This document shows positions 7,192 through 42,204 of a DNA stretch of 64,000 bases, in pieces; position 1 is the first letter of the stretch, and every line of letters begins with the position of its first letter. The notes beneath the pieces were generated by a model that searched no databases, was not told the DNA's origin, and worked only from the letters and a program-made list of their open reading frames with translations. The stretch is taken from the NCBI GenBank assembly GCA_017435485.1, contig JAFSEY010000004.1:1-64000 (forward strand). Direction: 5' to 3'. A program made the position numbers and the translations under genes. Origin of the DNA: Bacilli bacterium. Its GTDB lineage: Bacteria; Bacillota_I; Bacilli_A; RF39; UBA660.

Positions 7192-7209
7192 ATTTAGTTG
7201 ACTTTTTTT
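7183..7209 (+). terminator. Intrinsic terminator overlapping the next promoter
   Basis: GTTAACTAAA (7183-7192) pairs with TTTAGTTGAC (7193-7202, one G-U), followed by seven T. The stop codon of the YwaF-like gene and the -35 box of the following promoter both lie inside the stem. Confidence 0.65.
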
Positions 7210-7226
7210 GTTATTAATGATATTTT
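7198..7226 (+). promoter_or_regulatory. Promoter of the ABC-transporter leader
   Basis: TTGACT (7198-7203), 17 bp, TATTTT (7221-7226) with a TGA extension directly before it. It predicts a start near 7233 and a leader RNA of roughly 185 bases before the transporter gene. Confidence 0.6.
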
Positions 7227-7258
7227 GTAAGTGAATTTAAAGAGAAAGGAGTGGAAAT

Positions 7259-7348
7259 ATGAAGAAGTTAAATTCAAATGTTTTTAATAATATAATGGTG
7301 GTCAATAATATAAGAGTGAGGAAGCTTCTTTGTTTTTTCACTATCTAA
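7259..7348 (+). CDS. Putative 29-residue regulatory leader peptide
   Basis: A short frame runs from ATG 7259 to TAA 7346-7348 and is preceded by AAAGGAG (about 7246-7252), one of the better ribosome sites in this stretch. The peptide is MKKLNSNVFNNIMVVNNIRV followed by RKLLCFFTI. It lies between a promoter and an intrinsic terminator just before an ABC exporter, the layout of ribosome-mediated attenuators such as bmrB-bmrCD and leader peptides of antibiotic-resistance genes. An Arg-Val-Arg triplet lies at codons 19-21; Arg-X-Arg is known as a drug-dependent stalling motif in some macrolide leaders. Translation and stalling are inferred. Confidence 0.55.
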   Translation: MKKLNSNVFNNIMVVNNIRVRKLLCFFTI

Positions 7349-7375
7349 ATACTCTAACTTGTAATTGTTTTATGG

Positions 7376-7401
7376 CTACTATTTAACATAGTAGTTTTTT
7401 T
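7376..7401 (+). terminator. Intrinsic terminator in the ABC-transporter leader (attenuator)
   Basis: CTACTAT (7376-7382) pairs with ATAGTAG (7388-7394) around a 5-base loop, followed by seven T, only 17 bases before the transporter start. The end of the leader peptide frame contains TCACTATCTAA (7338-7348), which can pair weakly with the 3' arm (ACTAT with ATAGT) and also with AGTGA at 7315-7319. This allows mutually exclusive structures. Confidence 0.65.
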
Positions 7402-7418
7402 AGTAATAAGGAGGTCGT

Positions 7419-9149
7419 ATGAAAAATTTGAAAGAATTTAGACCTCTAATAAATTTAATTGGTAAAGATAAATATAAACTAATTGTTGCTAGTATTTTAA
7501 TTTTTATTTCTGGAATATTTGGAATATTTACAGGATATTTAAATGGTGCAGCAGTTGAAGCTATTACTAATTTGCGTGTTAAAGCGGCTTTAATTTATTT
7601 AGGAATATATTTTTTAATTGAAATATCCTTTTGTGGAGCAATTCAACATATAGCAACATCTATGCTTCATAAAGTGGAAAGTGCCTTAACAAGGAAGTTA
7701 GGATATTTTACTTACAAAAAGGCTCTTAATTTGCCGGCTGTGGCATTTGAAAAAATGTCTTCTGGTGAGATTATTAATCGTATTACTAATGATGCTGATT
7801 CTATTAGTTTTGCTTTTGGAAGATTGTTAAATATGTTTTCATCATTAGTAGCTGCAATTATTATTATTGTTTATGTTTTTATAAATTCCTGGATTATTGG
7901 ATTAGAAATTATTGTTTTATTAACATTACTTTTTTTAGTAATAAAAGTTTATAGTCCCAAAATGAAAAATGTTCACAAAGAAAGAAAAGTAGAGCAAGAT
8001 AAATTTACTTCTTTATCAACTGAGTCAATTAGAGGTATTAGAGAAATAAAAACTTTAGGAATTAAATCTAGTTTAATTAAAGATATAACTGAGGTTATAA
8101 AATTAATTTATAAAAAGTCAGAAAAAGAAATTAATATTCAAAAAGTGTTTAACATTATAACAAGGTTTTTAAAAACTGTTTTAGAAGTGGGAGTATTTGT
8201 TACTTGTGTAATATTATTATATTATGAAATGATTACATTAACTTTTTTTATTGCTATGACTTATTATGTTTATAGATATATGTGGTTAATCGAAAATTTA
8301 AATGATTTAACTCAAACATATCAAAAAGTTGTAGTTGCTATATCGAGAGTTAATGAAATATTGGAAAATAGGCTTTATCAAGATGAGTCTTTTGGAAGAG
8401 TAAAACTGAAAACTTTCAGAGGTTATATTAATTTTGAAAATGTAGTTTTTTCATATCCTGACGAATCAGCTACACTTAATGATTTTAATTTAACTATTGA
8501 ACCAAATAAAAAGGTGGCTATTGTCGGAAAATCTGGTCAAGGTAAATCTACTTTATTTAATTTGGTTACTAGAATATTCGATACAAATGAAGGTTCAATT
8601 AAATTAGATGGCATTGATATAAAAAAATTAAGCGAAGAAGAGTTGCGGAGGAATGTTTCAATTATTAGGCAAGATCCGTTTATTTTTAATAAATCAATTA
8701 AAGAAAATTTTCAGTTAATAGATAATAGAATTACTTTAAAAGAAATTAGAAAATATGCTAAAATGGCTTATATAGATGATTATATAATGTCGTTGCCTAA
8801 AAAATATAATACTGTTTTGGGTGAAGGTGGTATTAATTTGAGTGGTGGGCAAAAACAAAGGCTGGCTATTGCTAGAACGCTTTGTAAAAAAAGCAAGGTA
8901 ATTTTATTTGATGAAGCTACGAGCGCTTTAGATAATGAGTCACAATACTATATTAAAGAGGCAATTGATAATATTGTAAAAGATCATACTGTTGTTATCG
9001 TGGCGCATCGTTTATCTACCATAATGGATGCAGATATTATTCATGTTGTTGATAAAGGGAGATTAGTTGCTTCTGGTAAGCATGATGAATTATTGAAAAC
9101 AAATAAAATTTATAAATCTTTATATGAAACTGAATCTTTAAATTCATAA
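7419..9149 (+). CDS. ABC transporter, fused membrane and ATPase domains (multidrug/lipid exporter type)
   Basis: The 576-residue half-transporter has six membrane helices in residues about 20-300 and a C-terminal nucleotide-binding domain. The ATPase shows Walker A GKSGQGKST (about 370), signature LSGGQKQR (about 474), Walker B VILFDEATSALD and the switch His in VIVAHRLS, so it should hydrolyse ATP. This architecture (BmrA/MsbA/LmrA type) works as a homodimer and usually exports drugs, lipids or peptides. AAGGAGG lies just before ATG 7419. A translated-leader attenuator upstream would fit induction by a ribosome-targeting compound, which is inference. The substrate is unknown. Confidence 0.92.
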   Translation: MKNLKEFRPLINLIGKDKYKLIVASILIFISGIFGIFTGYLNGAAVEAITNLRVKAALIYLGIYFLIEISFCGAIQHIATSMLHKVESALTRKLGYFTYKKALNLPAVAFEKMSSGEIINRITNDADSISFAFGRLLNMFSSLVAAIIIIVYVFINSWIIGLEIIVLLTLLFLVIKVYSPKMKNVHKERKVEQDKFTSLSTESIRGIREIKTLGIKSSLIKDITEVIKLIYKKSEKEINIQKVFNIITRFLKTVLEVGVFVTCVILLYYEMITLTFFIAMTYYVYRYMWLIENLNDLTQTYQKVVVAISRVNEILENRLYQDESFGRVKLKTFRGYINFENVVFSYPDESATLNDFNLTIEPNKKVAIVGKSGQGKSTLFNLVTRIFDTNEGSIKLDGIDIKKLSEEELRRNVSIIRQDPFIFNKSIKENFQLIDNRITLKEIRKYAKMAYIDDYIMSLPKKYNTVLGEGGINLSGGQKQRLAIARTLCKKSKVILFDEATSALDNESQYYIKEAIDNIVKDHTVVIVAHRLSTIMDADIIHVVDKGRLVASGKHDELLKTNKIYKSLYETESLNS

Positions 9150-10523: not shown

Positions 10524-11610
10524 ATGAACAAAGATAATTTAATTATTGAATTAAAAAATTATAAAAAACGAATTGAAGAATTAGGGAGGTCTCTTTGACT
10601 TATCCACAAAATTAAAAGAAGTAGAAAGTTTAGAGTTAGAAGTTAATAATGATGATTTTTGGCAAGATATAACTAATGCCAACAGCATTAATAAAAGATT
10701 AGCAAACTTAAAAAAAGAAATTGATGATTATAACATTATTAGAAATCAAGTGTTGGATGGTTTAGAATTGTTACAATCTAGTGATGATGAAGAATTAATC
10801 GCTATAGTTATTGATGAAATGAATAGTTGGAAAGAAAGATTAGAAGATTTAGAAAATTTAGCTTTTTTGAGTGGAGAATTTGATTTATCTAATTGTTATT
10901 TAGAAATACATCCAGGGGCTGGAGGAACAGAATCCTGTGATTGGGCTTCGATGTTATATCGGATGTATACAAGATTTGCAGAAAAATATGGTTATGCTTA
11001 TGAAGTTGTTGATGAATTAAAAGGTGAAGAAGCAGGTATTAAAAGCGTTACTTTAAAAATAATTGGTGATAAAGCCTATGGCTATTTAAAACGCGAAAAT
11101 GGTGTTCATCGCCTAGTAAGAATATCGCCGTTTGATTCCAACAAAAGAAGACATACGTCTTTTGCCTCGGTATCAGTTATTCCTGAAATAAACAAGGATA
11201 TTAACATAGAAGTTAAAGAATCTGATTTAAAAATAGATGTTTATCATAGTAGTGGAGCAGGTGGACAATCTGTAAATACATCTAATTCAGCGGTAAGAAT
11301 TACGCATTTACCTACGAAAACGGTTGTTACCTGTCAAAATGAACGTAGTCAATTAAAGAATAAAGAACAAGCTATGAAACTTTTGAAAAATAAATTATAT
11401 TTATTAGAGTTAGAAAAACAAAATAGTGAGATTAATTCTTTAAAAGATAATAGTGTTAGTATCAATTTTGGCAGTCAAATAAGAAGTTATGTTTTAGAAC
11501 CATATAAATTGGTAAAAGATAATCGCAATAATTATGAAGATACTGATCCAGAAAAGATATTAGATGGTGAAATATTAGAACTTATCAAATCTTTGTTGAA
11601 AGTTAAATAA
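10524..11610 (+). CDS. prfB: Peptide chain release factor 2, with programmed +1 frameshift
   Basis: RF2 recognises UAA and UGA stop codons and triggers peptide release. The gene starts at ATG 10524 (AAAGGAA upstream), runs 24 codons to CTT TGA, then continues in the +1 frame from GAC 10597 to TAA 11608-11610, for about 361 residues in total. The RF2 codon-recognition tripeptide SPF is at about residue 201 (RISPFDSN) and the catalytic GGQ at about 246 (SSGAGGQSVNTSNSAVRITH). The shift makes RF2 control its own synthesis: low RF2 favours slippage. It shows that UGA is a stop here. tilS and ftsH follow closely. Confidence 0.95.
10584..10599 (+). promoter_or_regulatory. prfB frameshift signal
   Basis: Bases GGGAGG (10584-10589), a 3-base spacer, slippery CTT (10593-10595), TGA (10596-10598) and C. 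The internal Shine-Dalgarno-like element sits exactly three bases before the slippery codon, as in the classic prfB site of E. coli. Confidence 0.95.
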
Positions 11611-42049: not shown

Positions 42050-42072
42050 GGATTTATTGCATATAATACAAG

Positions 42073-42190
42073 TTAGAAAAAGCGATTCGCCGAAGACAGT
42101 AGGGACTTTATAGTTTAATAATCCTACCGAGGGAACTTAAATATACGATAATTTTAAGCTTCCCCATGCCCGGAAGCTTTTCTAATATAT
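42073..42190 (+). ncRNA. Ribosomal protein L10 leader (L10-L12 binding RNA)
   Basis: The conserved kink-turn motif GCCGAAGACAGTAGG, its pairing partner CCTACCGAGG (about 42123-42132) and a terminator-like stem around CTTCCCCATGCCCGGAAG precede rplJ. This is the leader by which L10(L12)4 represses rplJ-rplL translation in many bacteria. Confidence 0.8.
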
Positions 42191-42204
42191 AAAAGGAGGA
42201 TGTT

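What the first reader, a model, noticed from the sequence alone, without database searches (positions are those of the whole stretch)
7198..7419. Candidate leader-peptide attenuator upstream of an ABC exporter
A promoter, a 29-codon frame with a strong ribosome site, a palindromic segment near the end of that frame and an intrinsic terminator 17 bases before the transporter start form a classic ribosome-mediated attenuator, as known for bmrB-bmrCD. The peptide has Arg-Val-Arg at codons 19-21, and AGTGA in those codons can pair with TCACT in the last codons, so a stalled ribosome would change the fold. The sequence is not one I recognise, and the sensed compound is unknown.
Basis: partly seen in the sequence, partly recalled or inferred. 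Interest (0 to 1): 0.7.

Follow-up and report, generated by a model that had tools for sequence, protein, structure and literature searches.

The report
Ribosome-sensing switch before ABC exporter
A short reading frame ahead of a drug-exporter gene in an uncultured gut bacterium belongs to a conserved RNA switch, not in Rfam, that probably turns the exporter on when ribosomes are blocked at the start of the frame; the RNA pairings are conserved, the short peptide is not.

Summary
In detail: promoter, 29-codon frame (7259-7348), a hairpin inside its 3' end and a U7 terminator, all before a 576-aa ABCB-type exporter (7419-9149). At least 32 leaders, this one included, share the layout before related exporters. 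A nearly invariant 21-nt start (GAATTTAAAGAGAAAGGAGTG) is followed by a frame of 23-36 codons. Two long pairings co-vary: leader ribosome site/start codon with the end of the frame (1:3), and codons 12-16 with the terminator's 5' arm (A:4, the antiterminator). Native partners beat swapped ones in all 5000 permutations for both.

The peptide shows no amino-acid constraint (pooled pN/pS 0.97; exporter 0.20). Arg-Val-Arg is absent in the nearest sister.

Best reading: a ribosome-mediated transcription attenuator sensing ribosomes held at or just after initiation. It works like the vmlR leader but is built differently: the leader's own start site is one arm of the anti-antiterminator. No expression data exist; inducing drugs are unknown.

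The parts
7198..7226 (+). promoter: TTGACT -17- TATTTT with extended -10 TG
   Evidence: a similar TTGAC(A/T)...TAtaaT arrangement precedes the block in nearly all homologous leaders
7233..7253 (+). conserved 5' block of the transcript, GAATTTAAAGAGAAAGGAGTG, with the leader Shine-Dalgarno
   Evidence: exact in 12 other genomes of the family, unique in the own genome; GAAAGGAGTG invariant in a 15-leader alignment
7259..7348 (+). leader reading frame, 29 codons plus stop
   Evidence: open in 32 of 32 leaders while frames +1 and +2 are never open; pN/pS 0.97, so frame kept but peptide not
7247..7269 (+). segment 1: leader ribosome site plus start codons, 5' arm of the anti-antiterminator (1:3)
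   Evidence: predicted fold of free RNA; native versus swapped pairing 0/5000; 94.8% of cells paired on A4
7294..7304 (+). segment A (AATGGTGGTCA, codons 12-16): 5' arm of the antiterminator, pairs with 7373-7383
   Evidence: 11 uninterrupted pairs, 1 of 200 shuffles as good; native versus swapped across 29 leaders 0/5000
7315..7325 (+). segment 2 (AGTGAGGAAGC), pairs with segment 3 inside the antiterminator fold
   Evidence: fold with ribosome at codon 5; similar segment-1-like copies seen by eye in many relatives
7323..7346 (+). segment 3: last codons of the frame; pairs with segment 1 (OFF) or, 7332-7342, with segment 2 (ON)
7373..7383 (+). segment 4: terminator 5' arm and flank, partner of segment A
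7374..7401 (+). intrinsic terminator GGCTACTAT-TTAAC-ATAGTAGTT with U7 tract
   Evidence: equivalent terminator in 29 of 32 leaders
7419..9149 (+). 576-aa half-size ABC exporter (ABC_membrane + ABC_tran), the regulated gene
   Evidence: Pfam; relatives MsbA and P-glycoprotein

Best explanation
A ribosome-mediated transcription attenuator that reads whether a ribosome is held at, or within about the first seven codons of, the leader frame. With no ribosome, the leader ribosome site and start codon pair with the end of the frame (1:3). That traps codons 12-16 in a loop, the terminator (4:5) forms and the exporter is off. A normally moving ribosome sweeps codons 8-22, covers segment A and again allows termination. 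A ribosome held at the start covers segment 1; segment 3 then pairs with segment 2, segment A pairs with the terminator's 5' arm, and RNA polymerase reads through into the exporter gene. Shown here: the parts, their conservation and covariation, the open frame without peptide conservation, and the predicted folds for each ribosome position. Inferred: that the switch operates in cells, that the signal is a translation inhibitor acting at initiation or early elongation, and that the exporter removes such compounds.
For: 32 homologous leaders before related exporters. Covarying 1:3 (native -17.5 vs swapped -13.1 kcal/mol) and A:4 (-12.3 vs -7.5), 0/5000 permutations each; explicit compensations, e.g. 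GAGTGTTA/TAACACTC in L132, and GTGGTAATGA/TCATTACCAT versus GTGATAATGAC/GTCATTATCAT in L108/L109. 1:3 on MAFFT alignment A4: 94.8% paired versus at most 72.7% when slid, 2/500 shuffles reach the covariation score. Frame open in 32/32, other frames 0/32. Leader pN/pS 0.97 versus 0.20 for the exporter. Ribosome-block folding: L001 terminator 0.87 free, 0.02-0.04 with P site at codons 1-3, 0.91-0.94 at codons 8-22; mean over 29 leaders A:4 0.01 to 0.41. Codon-shuffled frames lose A:4 (0.20 versus 0.77). Leader and exporter keep together in differing neighbourhoods. vmlR is a tested precedent for initiation-stall sensing (PMC9226507).
Against: No expression, termination or drug data exist for this lineage. 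A fair number of leaders show little switching in equilibrium folding (e.g. L013, L048, L105, L108), so kinetics would have to matter. In L001, before the terminator's 3' arm emerges, A:4 is favoured even without a ribosome (0.99), so 1:3 must persist as an earlier-formed structure. A ribosome parked over the last codons (25-28 in L001) also predicts antitermination, so early stalling is not the only possible trigger. The swap and covariation tests do not remove phylogenetic relatedness. L019, L022, L217 and L132 lack a clear terminator.
Confidence: 0.72

Rival explanations
1. Sequence-specific arrest peptide: a macrolide- or ketolide-bound ribosome stalls at Arg-Val-Arg (R/K-X-R/K motif) in codons 19-21 and frees the antiterminator.
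For: R-V-R is present at codons 19-21; R/K-X-R/K is the preferred ketolide arrest motif (PMC8298421 abstract); TlrB induction uses an RYR motif (PMC9226507).
Against: Motif lost in the 87%-identical sister and absent or elsewhere in most leaders; pN/pS 0.97. Folding predicts termination for a ribosome at codons 19-21.
Confidence: 0.06
2. Attenuator triggered at the end of the frame: slow termination or a stall over the last codons masks segment 3, frees A behind the ribosome and prevents termination of transcription.
For: In L001 and a number of other leaders a ribosome over roughly the last six codons also predicts A:4; frames end just after segment 3.
Against: Last codons vary freely in amino acids and no common stall motif is seen; it does not explain why the leader's start region is the conserved partner of segment 3.
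Confidence: 0.12
3. Translation-independent switch: 1:3 and A:4 respond to a small molecule, protein or temperature; the frame is incidental.
For: Strong RNA-level conservation with no peptide conservation; the near-invariant 12 nt upstream of the SD are not explained by pairing.
Against: Frame open in all 32 leaders against 0/32 for the other frames, with SD and ATG inside the conserved block; no Rfam riboswitch match.
Confidence: 0.08

Closest known systems
vmlR leader of Bacillus subtilis (PMC9226507)
   Same: Upstream frame, anti-antiterminator / antiterminator / terminator logic; induction by ribosomes stopped at initiation; variant uORF peptides (MDN, MDK, MRK) also worked, i.e. peptide-independent.
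   Different: vmlR uORF has three codons in a bulge of stem-loop 1 with its SD single-stranded, and controls an ABCF protein. Here the frame has 23-36 codons, its own SD and ATG form an arm of the anti-antiterminator, codons 12-16 form the antiterminator arm, and the gene is a membrane exporter.
bmrB-bmrCD of Bacillus subtilis (PMC4191407)
   Same: Translated leader frame, terminator, lincomycin-type sensing by the translating ribosome, ABC multidrug exporter target.
   Different: bmrB is 162 bp with the terminator within its coding sequence and ends 119 bp before a two-gene exporter; here the terminator lies beyond the stop codon in most leaders and the exporter is a single half-transporter. 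I did not compare the two RNA sequences by alignment.
ermC / cat-86 leader peptides
   Same: Short frame with mutually exclusive hairpins responding to stalled ribosomes (general knowledge; summarised in PMC4191407).
   Different: Those act on translation and need stalling at a specific leader site; here transcription termination is the likely output in 29 of 32 leaders and the peptide is unconstrained.

Membership tests
ribosome-mediated transcription attenuator | short translated frame upstream with ribosome site | tested here: inconclusive
   frame and SD conserved, other frames closed in 32/32; actual translation not measured
ribosome-mediated transcription attenuator | intrinsic terminator between frame and gene | tested here: met
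   7374-7401 and 28 homologues
ribosome-mediated transcription attenuator | mutually exclusive antiterminator conserved by covariation | tested here: met
   A:4 native versus swapped 0/5000
ribosome-mediated transcription attenuator | read-through changes with ribosome position | tested here: inconclusive
   folding only: L001 terminator 0.87 to 0.02-0.04, mean 0.94 to 0.50; no experiment
vmlR-type initiation-stall attenuator | ribosome at the start codon disrupts the anti-antiterminator | tested here: inconclusive
   start codon lies in the 1:3 helix; blocking it gives A:4 0.97 in L001; prediction only
vmlR-type initiation-stall attenuator | induction by lincosamides or pleuromutilins | not testable with these tools
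   needs a reporter assay
arrest-peptide leader (erm, msrD, tlrB type) | conserved stall motif in the peptide | tested here: not met
   no shared motif, pN/pS 0.97
known Rfam cis-regulatory family | match at the gathering score | tested here: not met
   only the L10 leader at 42072 matched in the window

The most novel reading that the evidence does not exclude
A peptide-blind, first-ribosome switch: the leader's own start site is hidden by pairing with the end of its frame, so only a ribosome that loads before that end is transcribed can decide, and any compound that holds ribosomes at initiation or the first codons opens the exporter gene. This would be a distinct conserved attenuator architecture spread over many genera of one uncultured Bacilli family.
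Probability: 0.5. Interest if true: 0.62.

Novelty: new variant of a known kind. Interest (0 to 1): 0.5.

Why it matters
It gives a conserved attenuator family, not in Rfam, with pairings strong enough to predict its off and on folds, in uncultured gut Bacilli for which almost nothing is known about drug response. It predicts induction by initiation and early-elongation inhibitors without an arrest peptide, a testable generalisation of the vmlR mechanism to membrane exporters. It is also a caution against reading short leader peptides for arrest motifs before checking whether the amino acids are conserved at all.

Tried and rejected
Rfam at gathering scores: no match at this site. Search for the 21-nt block with up to 3 mismatches in 386 family genomes: many 3-mismatch hits are chance inside genes; the exact hits I looked at lie before the exporter. 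A looser pattern, AAAGGAGTGRRAN{0,4}ATG, matched more than half of the genomes and is only a common ribosome site; of the loci fetched, the structural filter kept one further real leader, L164. MAFFT over the whole leader misaligned segment 3 and the terminator, so covariation was tested by native-versus-swapped duplexes and on the frame-only alignment A4. A covariance model from A4 found the strong hits before the exporter, plus weak ones partly by chance; run on the window alone with default filters it did not list 7233-7348, although the genome search scored that site at E 7e-16, which I take for a filter effect. Amino-acid-starvation sensing was considered and rejected: no repeated regulatory codon is seen in the peptides.

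Full report
Observation. The frame is 7259-7348 (MKKLNSNVFNNIMVVNNIRVRKLLCFFTI), the terminator 7374-7401, the exporter 7419-9149. On its own the promoter match is not above chance and the generic scan missed the terminator because it has few G-C pairs. The test of reality is therefore comparative.

Relatives. The window is part of G000, a 1.09-Mb genome in 14 contigs; named relatives are MAGs of uncultured Bacilli, Bacillota and Tenericutes, several of them from animal gut. The exporter is a half-size ABCB protein (ABC_membrane + ABC_tran). I took the upstream DNA of its relatives (41-87% identity) from 193 family genomes and from genome contigs. Thirty-two distinct leaders, this one included, have the same layout: promoter, then 26-28 nt with the block GAATTTAAAGAGAAAGGAGTG or a near copy (exact in 12 other genomes), then a frame of 23-36 codons, then usually a terminator, then the exporter. 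Further members with a diverged 5' block (L035, L124, and probably L111 and L119), L164 and L217 extend the set. Other relatives of the exporter have no detectable leader, so it has been lost or gained repeatedly. Genes on either side differ between species, so leader and exporter form the conserved unit.

What is conserved. The peptide is not: pooled pN/pS over 14 close comparisons is 0.97 (these share sequences, so it is descriptive) against 0.20 for the exporter. Arg-Val-Arg is Asn-Val-Arg in the nearest sister, and no basic-X-basic motif has a common position. The frame is: it is open in 32 of 32, though my detection rule required at least 12 codons, while the other two frames always contain stops. 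The RNA pairings are. For segment 1 (ribosome site and start) with segment 3 (end of frame), native duplex energy averages -17.5 kcal/mol against -13.1 for swapped partners; for segment A (mid-frame, codons 12-16 in the window) with the terminator's 5' arm, -12.3 against -7.5. Neither native mean was reached in 5000 permutations. In the window A:4 is 11 uninterrupted pairs, 7294-7304 with 7373-7383. On a MAFFT alignment made without structure, 1:3 pairs in 94.8% of cells against at most 72.7% when slid by 1-3 columns, and 2 of 500 shuffles reach the covariation score. Relatedness of the sequences is not removed by these tests.

How it should work. 1:3 and A:4 cross, so both cannot form as ordinary nested helices. 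Free RNA is predicted to hold 1:3 and the terminator (L001: SD paired with the frame's end 0.88, terminator 0.87; mean of 29 leaders 0.81 and 0.91). Masking a ribosome footprint at each codon gives, in L001, A:4 0.95-0.97 at codons 1-3, 0.54-0.71 at codons 4-7, terminator 0.91-0.94 at codons 8-22, and A:4 0.93-0.99 again at codons 25-28. Averaged over 29 leaders A:4 rises from 0.01 to 0.41 at codon 1 and is zero at codons 9-18. Codon-shuffled frames lose the effect (A:4 at codon 2 0.20 against 0.77 native, before the terminator's 3' arm emerges). The ON fold in L001 is one long hairpin: A with 4, then 7305-7314 with 7358-7368, then segment 2 with 3. A fair number of leaders show little switching at equilibrium, and a late stall is a second possible trigger; both limit confidence.

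Known systems. The nearest in mechanism is the B. subtilis vmlR leader, where initiation-stalling drugs acting on a three-codon uORF prevent an anti-antiterminator and variant uORF peptides still work (PMC9226507). bmrB-bmrCD is the nearest in target gene (PMC4191407). Here the leader's own start site is an arm of the anti-antiterminator and the antiterminator arm is inside a much longer frame. It matched no Rfam family. The element belongs to a known kind, ribosome-mediated attenuation, with a distinct conserved architecture.

Specificity. The block is unique in the own genome. With the covariance model, hits of E at most about 1e-5 among 291 genomes lie before this exporter; weaker ones are mixed. 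One well-formed leader (L219) has no exporter after it and looks orphaned. I found no second gene class under this leader; L093, before a deaminase-like gene, looks similar but its membership is untested.

Noticed in passing
window 10593-10599: prfB (release factor 2) carries the usual programmed +1 frameshift site CTTTGAC preceded by AGGGAGG; the ORF listed at 10750 is only its downstream part.
   Followed up: partly
window 42072-42192: Ribosomal protein L10 leader (RF00557), 70.1 bits.
   Followed up: no
L093:1501-1670: Attenuator-like leader (frame MKSLQVINNAELITTPNL, SD region and mid-frame complementary to downstream arms, U-rich tail) before a protein with a cytidine-deaminase-type domain; resembles the present leader but may be independent.
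   Followed up: partly
L219:1501-1760: A well-formed leader (GGAGTGAGAATATG pairing with ATATTCTCAC) with no exporter after it; the next gene appears to lie on the other strand. Possibly an orphan after gene loss.
   Followed up: partly
L019, L022, L132, L217 (upstream of the exporter): Leaders that keep the 1:3 pairing but lack a clear terminator before the exporter; output may be translational there.
   Followed up: no
window 7233-7244: The 12 nt before the Shine-Dalgarno (GAATTTAAAGAG, probably the very 5' end of the RNA) are conserved beyond what the pairings explain.
   Followed up: no
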